Shown here one piece after another: positions 90-14,441 of a DNA stretch of 64,000 bases. The notes beneath the pieces are model-generated. The model worked only from the letters and a program-made list of their open reading frames with translations, did not search any database and was not told the origin of the DNA. The position numbers and the translations under genes are program-made. The stretch is taken from positions 1 through 64,000 of the forward strand of contig CAJOMU010000005.1 of NCBI GenBank assembly GCA_905235735.1, in the 5' to 3' direction. This DNA is from an uncultured Synergistales bacterium (GTDB lineage Bacteria > Synergistota > Synergistia > Synergistales > Aminobacteriaceae). Numbering within the stretch: the stretch's first letter is position 1; each line of letters begins with the position of its first letter.

Positions 90-3000
90 TTACTTTGCCC
101 CCTCTCCATTGCTCTCAGGGTCATTAAATATATCAGGCACTTTACGTTCTGATTCTGAATCATCAAGCATTATTTCTCTGCTCATGTCCATTAAGTCCTC
201 TGCACTTGGTTCATCACTGCCGAACAACATATCAGACATCTCTGACATATCAGCTTTCGGTTCTAATTCCTTCTCTGGCTCAGTTTCTGCTTCAGTTTCC
301 GGCTCAGTTTCTGGTTCAGGTGCAGGCTGTGATTTTGCTCTGCTCTTTCTGGGTTTTTTCGGAACTGAGAATATCTCAGGCGGTTTACTTCCCATGAATA
401 CGGGCTTGTCATCTTCCTCAATCGGTATGTCTCCGTGTGTACCGTCATCGAATTCAACCTCAACATCGAGACCTAAACCCTGAAGCTCCTTCACCAATAC
501 TCTGAAACTCTCAGGCACTCCGGGCTTGACGAGGCTCTGACCTTTCACTATGCGTTCATATGTCTTATCACGTCCGCGAATGTCATCTGATTTCACCGTC
601 AGAATTTCCTGAAGTACATTTGCCGCACCGTAACCTTCAAGTGCCCATACTTCCATTTCTCCGAATCTCTGTCCTCCGAACTGTGCTTTTCCTCCCAAAG
701 GCTGCTGGGTGATTAAACTGTACGGGCCTGTTGAACGTGCATGAATCTTATCGTCAACCAGGTGATTCAGCTTCAGCATGTACATACATCCAATCGTAAC
801 CTTCTTGTCCATTGGTCTGCCAGTTCTGCCGTCTCTAATCGTAATCATTCCGTCCTCTGTTAAGTCCGGATACTTTTCTGCGGCTATCTTCTTCATCTCA
901 GAAAATATTTCAGTCTCATTCGCACCCTCGAATACGGGCGTTGATACGTGCCAGCCGTTATTGAACGCAACGAATCCCATTATGGTCTCAAGAACCTGAC
1001 CGAGATTCATTCGGCTGGGAACTCCGAGAGGATTTAATACAACATCAACGGGTGTTCCGTCAGGGAGATACGGCATATCTTCAACGGGAAGAATTCGACT
1101 CACAACTCCCTTGTTACCATGACGGCCTGCCATTTTGTCGCCGACCGTTATCTTTCTTCTCTGTGCTACATACACCTTGATTGAACGAATCACTCCTGAA
1201 CTCAATGCTTCGGGGCTTGTCTTTCTATCCATTTGCTTTATTGCTACTACTTTTCCCCATGAACCATTAGGCAGCTTCAATGAGTTATCGCGGACTTCTC
1301 TGGCTTTCTCTCCGAAAATTGCGCGTAACAATTTCTCTTCGGGTGTCTGGTCAGATTCACCTTTGGGTGTAACTTTTCCAACGAGAATATCTCCTGCACT
1401 GACCTCTGCACCTATTCGAATTATGCCGTTATCATCGAGATTACGAAGCATATCCTCGCCTACATTCGGAATATCGCGAGTGATTTCTTCTGCTCCGAGT
1501 TTTGTCTCTCGTGCATCAATTTCATATTCTTCTATGTGAATCGATGAGAATTTATCTTCCTTCACGAGATTTTCACTCAGCAGTATTGCATCTTCAAAGT
1601 TATAGCCTTCCCATGGAACGAATGCAACCAATACGTTATGGCCAAGTGCAAGTTCTCCGTTCTCTATGGCCTGACCGTCAGCTATGATGTCGCCCTTCAG
1701 AACCTTTTCGCCTTTCTTCACGAGAGGTCTCTGATGTATCAGCGTGGACTGATTTGAACGCCTGAACTTTATCAGTTCATATGCTCGTTCTTCCCCTCTC
1801 TTATTTTTTATCTTTATCTGCTCTGAATCTACATACGTTACTGTTCCGTCTTCCCTCGCTGTTACACATGAACCCGAATCTAACGCTATTCTGTGTTCAA
1901 TCCCCGTTCCTACTATCGGTGCTTCAGGAACTAAAAGCGGTACTGCCTGACGCTGCATGTTTGAACCCATTAATGCCCTGTTAGCATCATCATGTTCAAG
2001 GAACGGAATTAATGCCGTTGAAGGTGAAACTATCTGACGAGGTGATACGTCCATATAATTAACCTGGTCAGCAGGTACAGTTACGATTTCGTCTGCATGT
2101 CTTGTCGGACATGTTTCTCCTGCAATAGTTACACCGTCATCTTCAAGTTTCGTGTTCGCCATTGCAACATAACTCTTGTCTTCATCATCAGCAGATAACA
2201 GCACAACTTCATCCGTCAGTTTTCCGCCTTCAACTTTCCTTCGAGGCGTTACGAGGAAACCGTGTGAATTCAGACTTGCGTATGTCGTCAATGATGACAC
2301 TAATCCTATGTTCGGGCCTTCGGGAGTTTCAATCGGACATACTCTTCCGTAGTGCGTGTAGTGAACATCTCTTGCTTCAAATCCTGCTCTCTCTCTGCTC
2401 AATCCGCCTGGCCCAAGTGCAGACAATCTCCTTCTGTGCGTTACTTCTGCTAATGGGTTCGTCTGATCCATGAACTGCGATAACTGTCCTGAACCGAAAA
2501 ATTCTCTCAGACATGCAGCTACAGGACGTACATTGATTAATTCACGGCCTGTTACCTCATCGAGATTCGGAATCGTCGTCATTCTCTCTCTAACGATTCT
2601 TTCCATTCTGAGAAGTCCTATGCGTACCTGATTCTGCAAAAGCTCACCGATTGAACGTACTCTCCTGTTTCCGAGATGGTCTATGTCATCGCTTATCTTG
2701 TCTTCAGCCTTCATCGCAAACATCTCTTTCATGATCGCAATTATATCCTGAAGCGTAATAAGCCTCTCGTCCTCTGAGACGTTCATGTTCAAACGCCTGT
2801 TCAGCTTATATCTTCCTACTCTGCCGAGCGTATATCTCCTCGTGTCCTGAAGCAATCCCCTGAAATATTCTCTCGTATTCTCTACTCTCGCCTGATCATT
2901 TGGTCTCAGCTTCTTGAATATCTCCTGAATCGCTTCATCTGGATTCTTCGTCTTATCGCAGGCAAGTGTCCTCGCAAGTGCAGTATCCATATCGTAAATC

Positions 3001-3830
3001 ATTATGCCCGCATCTTTATCGGGATATGCCCTGCTAAGTTCAGATAATATTTCGTTTTTCAGCAATTCACCTTTAGCTACAATTAAGTTTCCTTCTTCGC
3101 CGTTGTCATATACATCTTCTGCCGACATATAGCCTAATATAGCATTGTCGAACTGTCTGAATACAGTTTCTATGCCGAGCAGCTCTATTATCTCTTCGTT
3201 ATTGCGTGCTCCCAATGCTTTTAACAGCCACGTTACTGGAAGCCGTCTCCTGTTGTCTATGTTCACGGTTATGTATTCCTTCTCTGATTCGGGCATCGCA
3301 AAATCAAGCCATGCTCCTCTGTCTGGAATCAATTTCGCTGAACATGCATCTCCTGAATGCGTGAAATATATTCCTGCCGAACGTGCGAGCTGATTTATCA
3401 CAACTCGTTCCGTTCCATTGATAATAAATGTTCCTCGCTCAGTCATTACAGGGAAATCACCTAAGAATATTTCTTTTGCTTCCTTGCTGACATGAGTCTT
3501 CGTGTTCGTGAGTCTTATCGTCGCTTTTATAGGACGTGCCCACGTCATATCTTTCTGCCTTGCTTGTTCTTCCGTTATCTTTGGAGCATCGATTGAATAG
3601 CTCACATATTCGAGCGCAAAATTTCCGTCATAGCTTTCTATCGGGAACACTTCTTCAAGCAATTCCTGAAGACCCTGAGAAAGTCTCTCTTCGGGTGCTG
3701 TGTTATCCTGATAGAACCATTGATATGATGCTCGCTGCACTTCTATCATGTCGGGCATCTCTGTTACGTCATGTGCGCGTCCGAATGTGTAACGCTTCCT
3801 TGTCTTACTGATTGGAATAAATTCAGGCAT
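90..3830 (-). CDS. rpoB: DNA-directed RNA polymerase subunit beta (RpoB) with a long acidic C-terminal tail
   Basis: This is the beta subunit of the core RNA polymerase, which forms much of the active cleft. It is 1246 residues. Hallmarks in order include the rifampicin-pocket segment with FMDQTNPL and [14 protein letters not shown], then [40 protein letters not shown], and the C-terminal [20 protein letters not shown] clamp sequence. The usual resistance positions look wild type, so the pocket is predicted to be rifampicin-sensitive. The conserved protein ends near residue 1136. The remaining ~110 residues are low-complexity, with a basic patch, [14 protein letters not shown] repeats and an acidic Met/Asp-rich end. 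The ATG has GGGGAGG about 5 nt upstream. No rplJ/rplL precedes it; a tRNA gene does, and the gene has its own strong promoter. Confidence 0.97.
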
Positions 3831-4181: not shown

Positions 4182-5510
4182 ATGAACTTAGTCGTAATTG
4201 GCACCGGCTATGTAGGTCTCGTAACCGGTACTTGTCTCGCACGATATGGAAATAATGTTACGTGCGTCGACGTGAACGCAAAACGAATCGAAACTCTGAA
4301 CAAAGGCATCGTTCCTTTCTATGAACCTGGCCTCGAAGAAATGATGACCCGTAACATGAAAGAAGGAAGACTGCATTTTTCAAGGTCAACATCAGAGGCT
4401 TTAAATGACGCAGAAGTTTGCTTCATTTGCGTTGGCACTCCTCAATCTCCAGACGGAAGCGCAAATCTTCAGTTCATAGAGAGTGCTGCTCATGACATCG
4501 GCGAAGGTATGAAAGGTGATTTGCTCGTGGTCGTGAAATCTACTGTTCCTGCCGGCACAAATAAAATCGTTGAAGGCATAATACGTTCGGAACTTGAGAA
4601 TCGAAATGAGACTCATAAATTATTCATGGCCTCTAATCCTGAATTCCTTCGTGAGGGTTCATCACTAACAGATTTCCTTGAGCCTGACAGAGTTATTATC
4701 GGTGTGAATGATTCAGAAGCAAAAGATATTCTCTCTGAATTGTATTCGTTCCTTGAGCCTTCAAAATTATTGTTCATGGATACTGTCTCCGCTGAAATGT
4801 CAAAGTATGCCGCAAATGCAATGCTCGCATCAAGAATATCTTTCATGAATGAGATCGCAGGAATATGTGAACATGTAGGTGCTGATGTCGAATGCGTAAG
4901 ACGAGGAATAGGACTCGATGAACGAATCGGAAAGAAATTCCTCAAAGCAGGGTGCGGTTATGGTGGTTCATGCTTCCCCAAAGATGTTAGAGCTTTAAGA
5001 GATTTTGCGAGAGCTGCAGGTTATGAGCCGAAAATATTAACTGCCATTGATGAAGTGAATGAACGCGCAAAGGAATCAATGTTTGAGAAAATTGCGGGTA
5101 AATTCGATTCTCTGAATGGTAAGCTGATTGCAATTTGGGGATTATCATTCAAGCCTAAGACTTCAGACACAAGAGAAGCCCCTTCACATGTACTGATACG
5201 TTCACTGATTGATGCAGGTGCTTTGATTCACGCAAGCGACCCAAGAGCAATTGAGGAAACACGTGCAGTTATCGGTGAACATAAAGGTCTCGTTTACGTT
5301 CAGGATATTTATGACGCTGTTAATAATTCTGACGCTCTCGCAATCGTTACGGAATGGGACATATACAAGCAGCCAGATTTTAACCGAATGAAACGCCTGA
5401 TGAACAGGGCACTAATAATTGACGGAAGGAATTTGTATTCACCAAATGATATGAGGAGACGAGGATTTGAATACGTCTCTGTAGGAAGGCCGGAGGTGTT
5501 TGCTGAATGA
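4182..5510 (+). CDS. ugd: UDP-glucose 6-dehydrogenase
   Basis: It oxidises UDP-glucose to UDP-glucuronate in two NAD+-dependent steps, providing precursors for surface polysaccharides. The N-terminal Rossmann motif GTGYVGLVTG, the CVGTP segment, STVPAGT, NPEFLREGS, and the catalytic-cysteine motif GYGGSCFPKD (Cys about residue 264) are all present. The C-terminal UDP-binding domain carries WGLSFKPKTSDTREAPS. The start is ATG at 4182 (MNLVVIGTGYVG). A GTG at 4167 overlaps the AAAGGAG site and cannot be the start. The length of 442 aa is normal for the family. The stop overlaps the next gene by 4 nt, so the two are probably translationally coupled. Confidence 0.95.
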   Translation: MNLVVIGTGYVGLVTGTCLARYGNNVTCVDVNAKRIETLNKGIVPFYEPGLEEMMTRNMKEGRLHFSRSTSEALNDAEVCFICVGTPQSPDGSANLQFIESAAHDIGEGMKGDLLVVVKSTVPAGTNKIVEGIIRSELENRNETHKLFMASNPEFLREGSSLTDFLEPDRVIIGVNDSEAKDILSELYSFLEPSKLLFMDTVSAEMSKYAANAMLASRISFMNEIAGICEHVGADVECVRRGIGLDERIGKKFLKAGCGYGGSCFPKDVRALRDFARAAGYEPKILTAIDEVNERAKESMFEKIAGKFDSLNGKLIAIWGLSFKPKTSDTREAPSHVLIRSLIDAGALIHASDPRAIEETRAVIGEHKGLVYVQDIYDAVNNSDALAIVTEWDIYKQPDFNRMKRLMNRALIIDGRNLYSPNDMRRRGFEYVSVGRPEVFAE

Positions 5511-5941
5511 GAAAAATATTTGTATTCGTGATTGTGATTATGATGTGCTCTTTCGGGAGTGCATTTGCCGCCGATATTGTTAGCCTTGAACGTGAAGCTC
5601 AGGTATTGCGTGTAAATCTTAGGAGTGCAGAGAGTGCCGCAGAGAAAGAAGCAATACTTAGGAAAATAATCGATACATGCAAGGGTACAGAGGAAGCTGA
5701 AGCTGCATATTGGGATCTCGCTGACTTATACCTGAATGAATTTCCCAATGAACGAAGACGGGAAGCCGCAGAGATGTTAGAACTGTGCCTCAGAACATAC
5801 CCGAATTCAAACAAAAGCACAATGATTAAATGCAGACTCATTGACTTGTATGATGTGAGGAATAAGAGACGCACGGAACTCATAAATCAATTGAAGAATG
5901 ATAAGAATGTTCCTGAGATGATACGAAACTCACTGAATTAA
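5507..5941 (+). CDS. Small exported TPR-like protein of unknown function
   Basis: This 144-residue protein starts with a classical signal peptide (MRKIF, hydrophobic core, cleavage after AFA). The mature part is charged and helical: an ERE-rich coiled segment, then repeats resembling tetratricopeptides (EAAYWDLADLYLNEFPNER and MLELCLRTYPNSN). It is probably a periplasmic helical-repeat protein. It overlaps the ugd stop by 4 nt and precedes a strong terminator, so the two form a two-gene operon. I do not recognise a specific family, and no catalytic motif is visible. Confidence 0.75.
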   Translation: MRKIFVFVIVIMMCSFGSAFAADIVSLEREAQVLRVNLRSAESAAEKEAILRKIIDTCKGTEEAEAAYWDLADLYLNEFPNERRREAAEMLELCLRTYPNSNKSTMIKCRLIDLYDVRNKRRTELINQLKNDKNVPEMIRNSLN

Positions 5942-8341: not shown

Positions 8342-10075
8342 CTACTTGGCCTCCTTTGATGATGTGAATGCATTGAACTTGCATAACTGTTCGCATACTC
8401 CGCACCCAACGCAAAGAGTTTCATCAACGTGAGCTTTGCCTTCCTTCATTGATAAGGCAGGGCATCCTATCTTCATGCATGATTTGCAGGCCATACACTT
8501 TGATGTGTTCACCTTCAGCGGAGGGTTATGCTTCACATACTTCAATAATGCACATGGCCTCCTCGAAATTATCACTGATGATTCATCTGCGCTTAATTCT
8601 TCCTTCAGCACATCATCGCATTCCTTCAGGTTATAGGGGTCAATCACTCGTACACGTTTGAATCCCATTGCCCTGCATAATGCTTCGAGGTCAATTTTTC
8701 CGGCAGGGTCTCCTTTAATGTTGTAACCTGTCGTTGGGTTCTGCTGATGTCCAGTCATGCCCGTTATCGAATTATCGAGAATGATAACGACACTCTTGCT
8801 TTGATTGTATGCAATGTTAGCTAGACCTGTCATACCCGAATGCATGAATGTTGAGTCGCCTATAACTGCAACTGCGTGTTCTCCGCCTGCCTTATTGAAT
8901 CCGTGAAGTGCACTCACTGATGCTCCCATGCATAATGTCATCTCCATTGCGGATAACGGAGCGACTGCACCTAGTGTATAGCACCCAATATCACCGAGCA
9001 CTGTACATTTGTTCTTGCTGAGTGTGTAGAACAGTCCGCGATGAGGACAGCCTGCACACATCATAGGAGGTCTTGCGGGAATTTTCTCATCGAGTTTCTT
9101 TGCGTCATAATGAATCTGATTCAGTTTCTCAGATATTATGTTCTGGCTCAATTCTCCTTCAATGGGGAATATGTTTTTACCGTCGGGATTTAATCCGAGT
9201 TCCCTGCAATATCCCTCAATGAATCCGTCAAGCTCCTCAACCACAACTAGACGTTCAACACTTTCTGCGAACGTTTTTATCTTTGCGTCAGGCAACGGCC
9301 AAATCATTCCGAGCTTCAGGACTGGATATGTATCACCGCATACCTCTTTGACATACTGATAGCATGTTGACGATGTGATTATTCCGATTGATTTATCATT
9401 TCCAGATTCGATTCTGTTGATGTCGATTCGTTCTGCAAGTTCCTGAAGTCTTCGCATTCTCTCTTCTACGATTGGGTGTCTTCGTATTGCATTGCCGGGC
9501 ATCATGACATACTTTGCTATGTTCTTTTCGTAGGGCTTCGCAGGTATTTGATTGCGTTCTCCTGTTTCAACGAGCGATTGTGAGTGTGCAATTCGGGTAC
9601 ACATCTTCAGCATAACAGGACAGTCATATTCCTCTGAAAGGTCATATGCTCTCCTGAAGAAGTCTAATGCCTCTTGTGAATTTGAAGGTTCAAGCATTGG
9701 AAGTTTAGCGGCTCTTGCATAATGCCGTGAGTCCTGTTCGTTTTGAGATGAATGCATTCCTGCATCATCTGCGACACAGATAACCATTCCTGCATTTATT
9801 CCTGTGTATGATAATGTGAATAACGGATCTGCGGCGACATTCAGACCGACATGTTTCATTCCGCAGAAACTTCTTTTACCTGCAAGTGATGCACCGAATG
9901 CCGTCTCCATTGCAACCTTTTCATTAGGTGCCCATTCGCAATATATCTCATTGAACTTTGCAGCTTCTTCTGTTATCTCGGTGCTTGGTGTACCTGGATA
10001 ACTTGACGCAACACAACAACCTGCCTCATATAATCCTCTTGCTGCGGCGGTGTTGCCCTGCATTAACTGTTTCAT
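8342..10075 (-). CDS. iorA: Indolepyruvate:ferredoxin oxidoreductase, alpha subunit
   Basis: It is the catalytic TPP and iron-sulfur subunit, acting on pyruvates derived from Trp, Phe and Tyr during amino-acid fermentation. The N-terminal POR domain includes SSYPGTPSTEITE and GMKHVGLNVAADP. The TPP domain has PPMMCAGCPHRG and the motif GDSTFMHSG followed by an Asn-containing segment. The C-terminus is a two-cluster ferredoxin module with CMACKSC and CVGCGVCEQLC. The start is ATG at 10075 (MKQLMQGNTAAARGL), preceded by AAAGGGGG; upstream in-frame starts lack a site. The length of 577 aa is slightly under the usual ~600. A TATAAT at 10116-10121 on the minus strand could be its -10, but no clear -35 is seen. 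Confidence 0.96.
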   Translation of the reverse strand: MKQLMQGNTAAARGLYEAGCCVASSYPGTPSTEITEEAAKFNEIYCEWAPNEKVAMETAFGASLAGKRSFCGMKHVGLNVAADPLFTLSYTGINAGMVICVADDAGMHSSQNEQDSRHYARAAKLPMLEPSNSQEALDFFRRAYDLSEEYDCPVMLKMCTRIAHSQSLVETGERNQIPAKPYEKNIAKYVMMPGNAIRRHPIVEERMRRLQELAERIDINRIESGNDKSIGIITSSTCYQYVKEVCGDTYPVLKLGMIWPLPDAKIKTFAESVERLVVVEELDGFIEGYCRELGLNPDGKNIFPIEGELSQNIISEKLNQIHYDAKKLDEKIPARPPMMCAGCPHRGLFYTLSKNKCTVLGDIGCYTLGAVAPLSAMEMTLCMGASVSALHGFNKAGGEHAVAVIGDSTFMHSGMTGLANIAYNQSKSVVIILDNSITGMTGHQQNPTTGYNIKGDPAGKIDLEALCRAMGFKRVRVIDPYNLKECDDVLKEELSADESSVIISRRPCALLKYVKHNPPLKVNTSKCMACKSCMKIGCPALSMKEGKAHVDETLCVGCGVCEQLCKFNAFTSSKEAK

Positions 10076-10258
10076 GAAAGAATTATCCCCCTTTGATTTT
10101 CGCGTGAATTTTAACATTATACTTTGCAATTTAAATCGCTCATTAATAAACCAGAATTCATAAACGAGAGTATATTTTGTGTATCAAAGTCAATATATTA
10201 AAATTTAAGTCAGCCAGAAAAAATTGACGATGATAAATGACAGGAGATTTTTACATTC

Positions 10259-12082
10259 ATGAATCTTATTCGGAGGAACATTGATGTCTTTGATGAAAAT
10301 TATCCGAGACTTGAGAAATATGCAAAGAGTGCAGAGAAATGCATTGATTCAGGAGAATATAATCTCTGCATGATCTATCTCGGAAGAATAGCAGAGACAA
10401 TCACGAAAATACTTTGCAGACGAAGCAATATCCCATGTGATAATGATGAACCTGATTTATTGCGTAAACTTCTTGACCGTGAACAGATTACGCAGAGCAT
10501 AAGACAGAAGATTAAAGCGATAACGGAACTTCATTATGATGCATCTCATGAGGGCTATAATTCAAAGACATCATGCAGAAGAATATATGAAGCAGCCGTA
10601 CAGTTATGTGAATGGTTCATATCGGTTCAGAGATTCGACTTCCTGAATAGTTTAATGACAACTGAACGGTACGAGAATACACGCTATCCATTCACGAAGC
10701 TCGCGAAATTTGGAAGAGATACAGAGAACAATATATATTCCCTCACTCGCTACGGTCTTCTTTGTGTCGGGAACATGGGAGAAGAAGTTTGTATGCTTCT
10801 AACGTTCAAGTTCATTCACATGATAACGGCTGAAAAGGTGAATGAATTCCGAACATTAGAAGAGGCTAACGGAAGAGATATAAATCTGAGATACATTGCA
10901 GAACAACTTGAACGAGATGATCCCAATCTCAAAACGATAGCGCACAGAGTACGAAAACTTGAACAGGCACTCAGAATAAAATTTCTTCTTCACTGCGGCA
11001 TCATAGGAGAAGAACAGAAAAATATCCTTCAGAATATGCTTGAACCAAGAAACGGAGCAGTTCACGGAGAGATTGAGATTGACGGAGATAATATCACATA
11101 CTACACGAGAAGACATGATAAATTCAATATGAATGCGAAGAAGCTGCTCAATGATACGCAGTCATTATGTGTGTGGCTGTTCAGAAAGTTCATTCATGCA
11201 GGCTGTATTTTCACAGGCAGAGTTGAAAGCATAAACGCAAATAGTATACGTGTGTCTTCAGGGCCTGTATACGGTTTCGTGAGCGGTGAAAATATTCTTG
11301 AAGGCCATGAATGCGAAACAGGAAAAGTATACCCCTTTGACGTTGTGAGTGTTGAAGGTAATCGCATAAATCTCGGAATGAAATGGATGACTCTAGCACG
11401 ACGCTATAGAGCATATCATAATGATCAGGAAGTGAGAGCTGTAGTTGTCAGTGTAGAAGAAGGACACGGTGTGAACGTTGAGATAAGAGACGGACAAGAG
11501 GAAGGACTTGGTGCATTCATACCGTCATTTGAAATGAACAATATGAATCTATCAGAAGGTCGGGAAATCAATGCGAAGGTTAAGGGCTTCACTGTAGGCA
11601 AGCCATATATGTTCCTCACGATGAAAGATGTTGTTCAAGATGAAAGAGAAGATATTGAAGCGATAACTGAGATAACTGAAGAAGAAAAACATGAACTTCA
11701 GAAACAATTCCTCAGAATATGCATGTCAGGCACAGAAGAAGAAATATCACGTGCAATATCTTCTGGAGTGAATATAAATGTCAGAAACAGATCTCAGGCG
11801 ACAGGTCTTATGTTTGCAGCACAGAGGAACACTGCACATGCTGTTGAAATTCTTATTGATGCGGGACTTGATATTGATATGCAGGACATTCACGGGAACA
11901 CTGCATTGATTTACGCTGCCTCATACAATAATGATGATGTGGTTGATATGCTCATAGGCAAGGGAGCAGAAGTGAACATAATCAATCATACGGGGCATAA
12001 GGCATTGAACTTTGCGAGGAAGAATTACAGGCTCAATGACACGGAAGCATTGAGAGTTCTTGAAGAACAGACGAAGAATTGA
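10259..12082 (+). CDS. Multidomain DUF4145/HEPN-like, S1-like and ankyrin-repeat protein
   Basis: I do not recognise this 607-residue protein as a characterised family. Residues ~1-130 resemble the all-helical DUF4145 type found beside restriction and RNA-targeting modules, with a degenerate ELHYDASHEG motif (His92, His97). Residues ~165-310 form a second helical domain containing EPRNGAVHG, which fits the HEPN ribonuclease pattern R-x4-H (Arg264, His269). Residues ~315-365 and ~387-440 look like two beta-rich S1/OB units (FTGRVESI...YGFVSGENI and RAVVVSVEEG...GAFIPSF). Residues ~480-600 hold ankyrin repeats (GNTALIYAASYNNDDVVDML). No signal peptide or membrane segment is visible. AGGAG lies 12 nt before the ATG. 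It stands alone. An RNA-directed sensor or effector is inference from domain content only. Confidence 0.75.
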   Translation: MNLIRRNIDVFDENYPRLEKYAKSAEKCIDSGEYNLCMIYLGRIAETITKILCRRSNIPCDNDEPDLLRKLLDREQITQSIRQKIKAITELHYDASHEGYNSKTSCRRIYEAAVQLCEWFISVQRFDFLNSLMTTERYENTRYPFTKLAKFGRDTENNIYSLTRYGLLCVGNMGEEVCMLLTFKFIHMITAEKVNEFRTLEEANGRDINLRYIAEQLERDDPNLKTIAHRVRKLEQALRIKFLLHCGIIGEEQKNILQNMLEPRNGAVHGEIEIDGDNITYYTRRHDKFNMNAKKLLNDTQSLCVWLFRKFIHAGCIFTGRVESINANSIRVSSGPVYGFVSGENILEGHECETGKVYPFDVVSVEGNRINLGMKWMTLARRYRAYHNDQEVRAVVVSVEEGHGVNVEIRDGQEEGLGAFIPSFEMNNMNLSEGREINAKVKGFTVGKPYMFLTMKDVVQDEREDIEAITEITEEEKHELQKQFLRICMSGTEEEISRAISSGVNINVRNRSQATGLMFAAQRNTAHAVEILIDAGLDIDMQDIHGNTALIYAASYNNDDVVDMLIGKGAEVNIINHTGHKALNFARKNYRLNDTEALRVLEEQTKN

Positions 12083-12150: not shown

Positions 12151-12209
12151 GCGGGACTTTCATTTTGATTCATGATTTTGATTTACGAAAGAAGGAAAAT
12201 TTTTTCACA

Positions 12210-13841
12210 ATGCCCATTACAGATTTACTTGAGAGGAATTCAAAGCTATACGGAAATGAAGTAGCATTAGTAGAGATTAATCCGGAACTTGAAGAACCAA
12301 TACGCGCAACATGGAAAGAGTATGCATTGATTCAGCCGACATCATCGAAGCCATACAGACGCGAAATAACATGGGAAGTGTTCGATGAGAAAGCTAACAG
12401 GGTTGCGAACATGCTCTTGTCGCGAGGCATAAAGAAGGGTCAGAAGGTTGCGGTACTCCTAATGAACTGTCTCGAATGGCTGCCTATATACTTCGGTATT
12501 CTGAAGACAGGAGCAATAGCTGTTCCTCTGAACTTCAGATATTCATCAGACGAGATTGAATACTGCGTGAAACTTGCGGACGTTGATGTATTATTCTTTG
12601 GGCCAGAGTTCATTGGTAGAGTTGAGAACACAGTACTTGCACTCGGAGAACATTACCTGCTGTTTTTCGTTGGGACTAACTGTCCGTCATTTGCGGAGAG
12701 CTACAACGAAGCCGTGAATAACTGTTCATCAAGTGCACCGAAGATTCTGATTGAGGATTCAGATGAAGCAGCAATATATTTCTCATCAGGCACGACAGGA
12801 TTCCCGAAGGCAATTTTGCATAATCACACAGCGTTAATGCAATCGGCCAAAATGGAAGCGATTCATCATGAGACCACACATGAAGATGTATTCTTATGCA
12901 TTCCTCCGCTTTATCATACGGGAGCAAAAATGCACTGGTTCGGATCACTTTACACAGGAAGCCGCGCAGTAATTCTCAAGGGGACATCACCGAAAGCAAT
13001 TCTTGATGTTGTATCGTGGGAACATTGCACAATCGTATGGCTGTTAGTGCCATGGTGTCAGGACATACTGACTGCATTGGACAGAGGAGACATTAAACTT
13101 GAAGGCAGGCATTTATCACAATGGAGGCTTATGCATATTGGAGCACAGCCAGTACCGCCGTCATTGATTCGTCATTGGCTCGATTACTTCCCAAATCATA
13201 AATACGATACGAACTACGGGTTATCAGAATCAACTGGGCCGGGCTGTGTTCATCTTGGACTTGAGAACATTCATAAGGTCGGTGCAATCGGTATACCTGG
13301 TTACGGCTGGGAATTGAAGATTGTTGATGATAAAGGCGAGAACGTGAAGCAAGGTGAGACAGGAGAGTTATGCGTTAAAGGGCCGGGCGTAATGCTCTGT
13401 TACTATCACAATCCCGGTGCAACTCACGAGACCATAAAAGACGGCTGGCTTTTTACAGGAGACATGGCCATGATGGACGAAGACGGATTCGTTTATCTTG
13501 TTGACCGAAAGAAGGACGTTGTGATTATGGGAGGCGAAAATATTTATCCTGTTCAGATTGAGAATTTCCTTACTGCACACCCGAAGGTACATGATGTCGC
13601 TGTTATTGGTCTTCCTGATCCGAGACTGGGTGAAATTCCAGCGGCAATAATTCAGGTGAAGAAGGGAATGACATGCACAGCAGAAGAGATTGATAGATTC
13701 TGTTTAGACCTGCCGAGATATAAGCGTCCGAAGAGAATCATCTTTGCAGACGTACCGAGAAATCCGACGGGTAAGATAGAGAAGCCGAAACTGCGTGAAA
13801 TGTATGCGACAGGAAAGAGTTTCTTCGACAAGGAAGCATAA
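12210..13841 (+). CDS. AMP-dependent acyl-CoA synthetase (fatty-acid CoA-ligase type)
   Basis: This 543-residue class I adenylate-forming enzyme converts a carboxylic acid to its CoA thioester using ATP. Motifs include the P-loop YFSSGTTGFPKAILHNH, YGLSESTGPG, the GWLFTGDMAMMDEDGFVYLVDRKKD core with its Asp and Arg, and the catalytic lysine region NPTGKIEKPKLRE. The chosen start is ATG 12210, with GAAGGA 13 nt upstream. A TTG at 12165 in frame has no site. It is monocistronic or leads the downstream DUF4160/DUF2442/lgt set, with only 2 nt to the next gene. The domain pattern suggests medium- or long-chain or aryl acids; the specific substrate is unknown. Confidence 0.9.
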   Translation: MPITDLLERNSKLYGNEVALVEINPELEEPIRATWKEYALIQPTSSKPYRREITWEVFDEKANRVANMLLSRGIKKGQKVAVLLMNCLEWLPIYFGILKTGAIAVPLNFRYSSDEIEYCVKLADVDVLFFGPEFIGRVENTVLALGEHYLLFFVGTNCPSFAESYNEAVNNCSSSAPKILIEDSDEAAIYFSSGTTGFPKAILHNHTALMQSAKMEAIHHETTHEDVFLCIPPLYHTGAKMHWFGSLYTGSRAVILKGTSPKAILDVVSWEHCTIVWLLVPWCQDILTALDRGDIKLEGRHLSQWRLMHIGAQPVPPSLIRHWLDYFPNHKYDTNYGLSESTGPGCVHLGLENIHKVGAIGIPGYGWELKIVDDKGENVKQGETGELCVKGPGVMLCYYHNPGATHETIKDGWLFTGDMAMMDEDGFVYLVDRKKDVVIMGGENIYPVQIENFLTAHPKVHDVAVIGLPDPRLGEIPAAIIQVKKGMTCTAEEIDRFCLDLPRYKRPKRIIFADVPRNPTGKIEKPKLREMYATGKSFFDKEA

Positions 13842-13843
13842 AC

Positions 13844-14110
13844 ATGCCTGAACTAAGCCGTTTTTGTGGAATGATTATTTACATGCTGTTTTATGACATA
13901 GGACAGCATAATAAACCTCATGTTCACGTTTACTACGGTGAATATGAAGCAGTGATTGCTATTGACGGAGAACTTTTAGCAGGTTCTCTTCCAGTGAAAC
14001 AGATGAAGATTATTACAGGCTGGCTTGCTTTCCATGAAGAAGAAGCATACAGAGCATGGAATCTCGCTGTGAGAGGCGAACACTTTGATAAAATTCCGCC
14101 AATGAAGTGA
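13844..14110 (+). CDS. DUF4160 domain protein
   Basis: This 88-residue protein has the DUF4160 core: MIIYMLFYDIGQHNKPHVHVYYGEYEAVIAI, followed by GELLAGSLPVKQMKIITGWL and a helical tail. The HNKPHVHV His cluster is the family hallmark. DUF4160 genes are typically followed by DUF2442 genes, as here. The pair is often proposed to be a toxin-antitoxin-like module, though I know of no solid biochemical proof. It begins 2 nt after the acyl-CoA synthetase stop, using the AAGGA inside that gene's end. Confidence 0.88.
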   Translation: MPELSRFCGMIIYMLFYDIGQHNKPHVHVYYGEYEAVIAIDGELLAGSLPVKQMKIITGWLAFHEEEAYRAWNLAVRGEHFDKIPPMK

Positions 14111-14114
14111 GGTT

Positions 14115-14441
14115 ATGCAAATGTACATAGTAAATGATATTTGTTATGCAGGAAAACTCGAAGACGGAATAAAGATAATTGAAGCTAAACCATTAATAGG
14201 AGGCGTGATACTCGTAACATTTTCAACAGGTGAGAAACGTCTTTTTGATACGACACTTCTTGAAGGAAAAGCATTTAAACCTCTTGAAGATGAAAAAGTA
14301 TTCAACAATCCTGTTATCTTTCAGGGTGTCATTACATGGAATAACGGCGAAATAGATATTGCACCTGAGAAAGTCTACAAAGAGAGTTTTGCATACAGCA
14401 GCAAAGCAATACAAGGAGAAGAAATATGTACCCTACGTTAA
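14115..14441 (+). CDS. DUF2442 domain protein
   Basis: This 108-residue partner of the DUF4160 protein lies 4 nt downstream. The core IIEAKPLIGGVILVTFSTGEKRLFDTTLL, then FQGVITWNNGEIDIAPEKVY, matches DUF2442, a small beta-rich fold. Its last 16 nt overlap the start of the Lgt-like gene and contain that gene's ribosome binding site, so the module is transcriptionally and perhaps translationally linked to it. Confidence 0.88.
   Translation: MQMYIVNDICYAGKLEDGIKIIEAKPLIGGVILVTFSTGEKRLFDTTLLEGKAFKPLEDEKVFNNPVIFQGVITWNNGEIDIAPEKVYKESFAYSSKAIQGEEICTLR

What the first reader, a model, noticed from the sequence alone, without database searches (positions are those of the whole stretch)
10259..12082. 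Unusual DUF4145/HEPN-like, S1-like and ankyrin-repeat protein
One frame joins two helical domains, the second with an R-x4-H motif (Arg264/His269) typical of HEPN ribonucleases, two OB/S1-like units and ankyrin repeats. This is an effector-like, RNA-binding and protein-sensing combination. I know of no described protein with this order. It sits alone between metabolic operons.
Basis: partly seen in the sequence, partly recalled or inferred. Interest (0 to 1): 0.75.

Follow-up and report, generated by a model that had tools for sequence, protein, structure and literature searches.

The report
Ankyrin-tailed tandem HEPN ribonuclease, rumen Synergistaceae
A rumen bacterium carries a probable RNA-cutting protein built from one dead and one apparently live HEPN domain, two RNA-binding S1 domains and an ankyrin protein-binding tail; most relatives keep the gene at the same place in the genome, yet in some species pairs it has diverged far more than its neighbours, as genes used in biological conflict often do, though no function has been tested.

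Summary
The reading frame is real and its parts are as described: two homologous DUF4145/HEPN domains, a pair of S1 (OB-fold) domains and one ankyrin module. The second HEPN domain carries R264-N265-x-A267-x-H269, unchanged in 25 of 25 aligned proteins; the first has lost the motif. Strong matches are in 36 of 43 genomes of the genus and 0 of 38 other genomes of the family; most sit divergent from an iorA-like gene. Ankyrin modules vary in number. New here: against the sister species G012, 31 window ORFs (this one included) have median identity 95.3% and dS 0.28, whereas this gene has 63% and dS 1.34, and the divergence begins and ends about at the gene. That points to replacement by a divergent allele at a fixed locus; of seven close pairs it is clear in two, partial in one, absent in two, not judgeable in two. 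Best explanation: an RNase whose live HEPN domain is controlled by its dead twin and the ankyrin tail, in phage defence or stress. Catalysis, target, trigger and role are untested. RNase L is an analogue, not a family. New variant of a known kind.

The parts
10259..12082 (+). whole gene, 607 aa, tandem HEPN + 2 S1 + ankyrin
10295..10630 (+). HEPN1 (residues 13-124), DUF4145-like, motif lost (pseudo-HEPN)
   Evidence: match to AF_0298 HEPN Z 13.9; the place of R264 is mostly K, the place of H269 is His in 2 of 25 rows
10694..11191 (+). HEPN2 (residues 146-311), predicted catalytic
   Evidence: hhalign to HEPN1 probability 99.5; Pfam DUF4145 over cut-off in 5 of 7 HEPN2 domains scanned, not in the window's own nor in L048
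11048..11065 (+). RNGAVH, the R-x4-H motif (R264, N265, A267, H269)
   Evidence: R, N, A, H invariant in 25 of 25
10805..10963 (+). insertion in HEPN2 (about residues 183-235), in the alignment full length only in the window protein and L040; a shorter one in L042
   Evidence: alignment A4
11201..11383 (+). first S1/OB domain (residues about 315-375)
   Evidence: strands; Pfam S1 in 17 of 20 relatives
11420..11626 (+). second S1/OB domain (residues about 388-456); lacking in three of 20 relatives (L034, L037, L038)
11693..12070 (+). C-terminal ankyrin module (residues 479-604)
   Evidence: (208.9 bits, with a model built from such modules)
8342..10129 (-). iorA-like gene (TPP enzyme / POR_N / ferredoxin domains; the name indolepyruvate ferredoxin oxidoreductase alpha is recalled), divergent conserved neighbour
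12165..13841 (+). AMP-binding (acyl-CoA ligase-like) gene, frequent downstream neighbour

Best explanation
A gated endoribonuclease. HEPN2 cuts RNA with R264/N265/H269 (inferred from the motif). HEPN1 is a catalytically dead partner that pairs with HEPN2 or holds it off (inferred). The two S1 domains grip RNA or the ribosome (inferred from fold). The C-terminal ankyrin modules bind a protein or other ligand that releases or blocks cleavage (inferred). The gene mostly stays at one core locus but its alleles are replaced by divergent ones from time to time, as expected if it is in conflict with phages or other mobile elements; the likeliest use is phage defence or stress dormancy by RNA cleavage. 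Shown by computation: architecture, motif invariance, genus restriction in the genomes searched, common locus, outlying divergence in some species pairs. Not shown: catalysis, target, trigger, defence.
For: HEPN fold for HEPN1; HEPN1 and HEPN2 homologous; R-N-x-A-x-H in 25 of 25, a polar residue after R being typical where the motif is kept (PMC3710099, passages seen); S1 and ankyrin folds; divergence peak at the gene in window against G012 and raised dS in L045/L062; other proteins with HEPN-like and ankyrin parts in the same genus (L082, L084, L086).
Against: No defence genes seen beside it: neighbours scanned are metabolic. Two of seven close pairs (L051/L053, L050/L059) show ordinary divergence, and in L045/L062 a nearby 290-aa gene is even less conserved (61%, dS 1.01). 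A pattern scan of viral contigs found no relative. The PADLOC hits with a family-like name cover only the ankyrin or the HEPN part. No antitoxin-like partner is seen. HEPN2 has only a middling match to Csm6 (Z 7.5), in the range the tool calls a common arrangement, and another Csm6 chain aligns to HEPN1 instead (Z 7.7). A test of whether iorA and the gene share a history gave a weak but positive correlation, so some vertical descent remains.
Confidence: 0.5

Rival explanations
1. A housekeeping RNA-processing or RNA-decay factor of this genus (for example rRNA or mRNA processing on ribosomes through the S1 domains), not a conflict gene.
For: Mostly syntenic and in 36 of 43 genus genomes; one copy in the own genome, its other listed matches being ankyrin only; strong purifying selection in HEPN2 of close pairs (dN/dS about 0.02, 0.04 and 0.09 in L051/L053, L050/L059, L044/L046).
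Against: No strong match in 7 genus genomes, three of them 97% complete, nor in 38 genomes of other genera; outlying divergence and variable ankyrin number.
Confidence: 0.25
2. A protein injected into or released on other cells (rumen protozoa, competitors) through a type IV machine, ankyrins binding host proteins.
For: Ankyrin matches abound in the genus; the own genome has a VirB4-like ORF (partial match, 48.9 bits); weak ankyrin-only similarity to Dot/Icm effector models, far below their cut-offs.
Against: No signal sequence seen by eye; VirB4 may be conjugative; no secretion gene among the neighbours scanned.
Confidence: 0.1
3. A non-catalytic RNA-binding regulator: both HEPN domains bind RNA, as proposed for MtlR-type HEPN domains.
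For: HEPN1 lacks the motif; the abstract of PMC3710099 (seen) says that some HEPN domains lacking it probably bind RNA.
Against: R, N and H of HEPN2 are invariant in 25 of 25.
Confidence: 0.15

Closest known systems
DUF4145/HEPN domains of type I restriction endonuclease-like proteins (PRK11448) and PADLOC candidate PDC-M16A
   Same: Nearest sequence match of HEPN1 (PRK11448 44.3 bits, residues 6-124; PDC-M16A residues 6-130, 34.3 bits); a HEPN1-like stretch also in a 1125-aa ORF of another family of the order
   Different: Far below the PRK11448 cut-off of 729 bits; only the HEPN part matches; here the domain is duplicated and joined to S1 and ankyrin
RNase L and other eukaryotic HEPN-ankyrin fusions (KEN with ankyrin; DZIP3/hRUL138 with ankyrin: table in PMC3710099, passages seen; RNase L mechanism recalled)
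   Same: Ankyrin plus HEPN-superfamily domain in one chain; idea of ligand-gated RNA cleavage
   Different: Domain order reversed relative to RNase L (recalled), no kinase-like domain, S1 pair present, HEPN of DUF4145 type, bacterial; no 2-5A evidence
Csm6 (CARF-HEPN RNase)
   Same: HEPN2 half of the model aligns with a Csm6 chain (Z 7.5)
   Different: No CARF domain reported by Pfam; match of middling strength, and a Csm6 chain also aligns with HEPN1
HepT / MntA-HepT toxins
   Same: HEPN fold (6m6w Z 10.0 for HEPN1); weak NCBIfam HepT hit to HEPN2 (E 0.025); R-x4-H motif
   Different: No nucleotidyltransferase gene among the neighbours scanned
Ribosomal protein S1
   Same: S1 domain pair
   Different: Two S1 domains only, fused to HEPN and ankyrin

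Membership tests
HEPN superfamily | HEPN helical fold | tested here: met
   HEPN1 against 2hsb Z 13.9, rmsd 2.3, 112 aligned; ROQ domain rows reach 12.2; HEPN2 homologous to HEPN1 by profile
HEPN superfamily | R-x4-6-H motif with polar residue after R | tested here: met
   HEPN2 25 of 25 rows; HEPN1 lacks it
HEPN superfamily | metal-independent RNase activity | not testable with these tools
   needs bench assay
DUF4145 (PF13643) | score over Pfam cut-off | tested here: met
   whole window protein 27.6 against 23.1 bits; its single domains fall below (19.9 and 15.0); 5 of 7 HEPN2 and 0 of 3 HEPN1 domains scanned exceed it; six-frame scan of own genome finds none at E 0.001
S1 RNA-binding domain | S1/OB fold | tested here: met
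   Foldseek to bS1 E 1.4e-7 and 2.4e-6; Pfam S1 in 17 of 20 relatives, not in the window protein
Ankyrin repeat proteins | ankyrin repeats over cut-off | tested here: met
   Ank_2 56.3 against 27.3 bits
RNase L | ankyrin, pseudokinase and KEN in that order (recalled) | tested here: not met
   no kinase family in the Pfam scan, ankyrin at the C-terminus
MNT-HEPN toxin-antitoxin | adjacent MNT antitoxin gene | tested here: not met
   adjacent genes are an iorA-like and an AMP-binding gene by Pfam
Csm6 | CARF plus HEPN | tested here: inconclusive
   no CARF family in the Pfam scan and the N-terminal domain is a HEPN fold, but HEPN2 has Csm6 rows of middling Z

The most novel reading that the evidence does not exclude
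A bacterial counterpart of RNase L arrived at separately: a core-locus immune RNase whose ankyrin tail senses an invader product and whose sensor and RNase alleles are replaced between species at a fixed site, so that each species carries its own version of one conserved immune gene outside any defence island.
Probability: 0.25. Interest if true: 0.78.

Novelty: new variant of a known kind. Interest (0 to 1): 0.55.

Why it matters
HEPN RNases are often toxins or parts of restriction and CRISPR systems (PMC3710099, passages seen); here one is joined to S1 and ankyrin domains, sits alone in the core genome and yet in some species pairs diverges like a conflict gene. If the ankyrin tail gates cleavage it would be a bacterial test case for RNase L-like control, and it suggests that defence genes outside islands might be found by a divergence peak between conserved neighbours.

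Tried and rejected
Viral contigs: 30 pattern stretches, none confirmed as a relative. PHROGs: weak hits only, best for the window protein E 0.013, for L050 a 'DNA binding protein' family at E 8.7e-5. PDB sequence search with the HEPN alignment: one hit at E 0.94, a chloroplast ribosomal S1. Foldseek with the HEPN model: 0 matches at E 0.001; HEPN-type entries are ranks 2 to 4 (E 0.44 to 0.97, probability 1.00), rank 1 being an unrelated viral protein. Csm6 as the parent of HEPN2: not settled. A Mantel test of iorA against the gene gave a weak correlation (rho 0.27, p 0.032, n 19 including the window). HEPN1 changing faster than HEPN2: seen in 4 of 7 close pairs, about level in 2, reversed in 1, so not claimed. 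A small coiled-coil, membrane-like ORF between iorB and iorA in some loci was considered as a partner and dropped: present in 4 of the 5 loci printed (the fifth ORF, from L024, does not resemble the others), absent from the window, no Pfam match for the one scanned. Papers: searches listed no description of this architecture; that is all that supports 'not in print', and the library lacks most subscription journals. Of these, passages of PMC3710099 and PMC8195603 were seen; the others as search listings only.

Rows dropped: L039 (5' truncated) from A1 and A2; L063 and L065 (5' truncated) from A3, A4 and the later comparisons; L049 and L057 (cut at contig ends) from the C-terminal comparison; L049, L057, L042 and L043 from the rows used to build the ankyrin-module model. 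In one search, 18 of 51 window ORFs had no match in the fetched G012 stretches and 2 a partial one; these 20 were not used.

Full report
What is there. The frame 10259-12082 (+) encodes 607 aa. Pfam finds ankyrin repeats (E 4.9e-15) and DUF4145 (E 3e-6 over two stretches). An AlphaFold model of the whole protein has mean pLDDT 86.3 and pTM 0.64; one of residues 1-327 has 87.6 and 0.83. Residues 13-124 match solved HEPN proteins, best AF_0298 at Z 13.9; ROQ domain rows reach 12.2. Foldseek places the middle on ribosomal protein S1 and the end on designed ankyrin proteins.

Two HEPN domains, one apparently live. Profile comparison of residues 1-128 with 141-314 gives probability 99.5 and E 1.5e-22, so they look like a duplication. 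In 25 aligned proteins (window plus 24 of the 26 loci; two 5'-truncated loci left out) R264, N265, A267 and H269 are invariant, whereas in HEPN1 the place of R is mostly K (16 of 25) and the place of H is His in 2 of 25. The passages seen of PMC3710099 say that where the motif is kept the residue after R is mostly N, D or H, that the His was essential in RNase L, RloC and PrrC, and that the Arg was needed in RNase L's KEN domain and PrrC.

Family and distribution. With a HEPN-S1 model, 36 of 43 genomes of the genus have a strong match (E about 1e-68 or better); 7 do not (G002, G006, G015, G019, G067, G073, G074). At the loose threshold of E 0.001, 80 of 81 genomes of the family match, but the best listed match among the 38 of other genera is E 6.5e-19, a HEPN1-like stretch in a 259-aa frame of G095. 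Most other listed ones cover the S1 part in frames of about 500 to 600 aa; I take these for ribosomal protein S1, having translated only the own genome's. In 149 genomes of the order, 27 match at E 1e-8: 25 strong ones, all in this genus, G015 weakly, and G140 with a HEPN1-like stretch in a 1125-aa ORF. A pattern scan of the genome-contig collection (84,980 species by its description) gave 26 loci, all titled Synergistaceae, Synergistales or Fretibacterium, 23 of them with ruminant sample names; such a scan reaches near relatives only.

Locus. Of 24 loci compared, 20 carry an iorA match, 19 of them within about 360 bases and divergent; in L043 it is about 4 kb away; L051, L053, L054 and L056 have none, L053 having about 100 and L056 under 800 bases upstream. 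L025 (G011), from the other set, also lacks the usual neighbours. An AMP-binding gene often follows. For the 7 genomes without the gene, iorA was found in 4 at E 1e-50, and other genes lie beside it there.

Ankyrin tail. A model built from the last modules of 21 proteins (about 122 aa) finds one module in the window protein, in L058 and in the truncated L049, two or more whole or partial ones in the other 22, and eight hits in L052. Last modules mostly score 160 to 212 bits, which the construction favours, but L042, not used in building, also reaches 159.7; inner ones score 11 to 120. Exceptions: L043 and L064 end with weaker modules, and L049 and L057 are cut at contig ends.

Outlying divergence. 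Against the sister species G012, six flanking genes show 95 to 100% identity and dS 0.27 to 0.44, while this gene shows 63% and dS 1.34, with 1.4 to 3.3 in HEPN and S1 parts and 0.57 in the ankyrin part. DNA identity falls from about 93% to about 65% in the stretch between iorA and the gene and recovers within the ankyrin part. Among 31 window ORFs compared, this one included (two of them hit the same G012 frame), the median is 95.3% and dS 0.28; the next lowest identity is 86.1% (5507-5938) and the next highest dS 0.65 (rpoB). The high synonymous divergence speaks for replacement by an older, divergent allele rather than fast protein change alone.

How general. Six further close pairs were examined, with approximate domain limits. 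L045/L062: gene dS 1.09 (HEPN1 1.69) against 0.49 to 0.68 in eight other genes, but a ninth has 1.01 and only 61% identity. L044/L046: only HEPN1 (0.82) and inner ankyrins (0.66) raised. L044/L049 and L048/L062: neighbours too diverged to judge. L051/L053 (two neighbours to compare) and L050/L059 (four): no rise. So replacement is episodic, clear in 2 of 7 pairs counting the window pair; the last two also suggest that the gene has no built-in high synonymous rate.

Related designs in the genus. L082 has a DUF4145-like part plus ankyrins, L084 (in G015, which lacks the S1 form) two HEPN-like parts plus ankyrins with RNNFAH in the second, and L086 a DUF4145-like gene directly downstream of the family gene (read by eye, not scanned with Pfam). 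HEPN joined to ankyrin thus seems to recur.

Mechanism. Motif, fold and constraint support an RNase in HEPN2. That HEPN1 is a dead partner, that S1 domains hold RNA and that the ankyrin tail gates activity are inferences. Phage defence is the likeliest role given the divergence and the company HEPN domains keep, but the metabolic setting and lack of defence neighbours count against it. Verdict: real, an architecture of known parts that my searches did not find described, function open.

Noticed in passing
13844-14441 (+): Two small adjacent genes, DUF4160 (76.5 bits) and DUF2442 (26.4 bits) by Pfam, a possible toxin-antitoxin-like pair (recalled). Whether G012 has it cannot be told, as its contig ends inside the preceding gene.
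   Followed up: partly
93-3830 (-): rpoB (Pfam) has dS 0.65 against G012, the second highest of the 31 ORFs compared.
   Followed up: no
L029:7311-7718, L035:3683-4021, L033:5742-6224, L026:5319-5867: A coiled-coil, membrane-like small gene lies between iorB and iorA in several relatives; absent from the window; no Pfam match for the L033 copy.
   Followed up: partly
G000 contigs C1, C3, C5, C18, C29, C10: The own genome has 16 ankyrin matches in six or seven frames and one partial VirB4-like match (C10).
   Followed up: partly
L086:2689-3330: A second DUF4145-like gene with RN-x3-H and a short ankyrin remnant sits directly downstream of the family gene in G003.
   Followed up: partly
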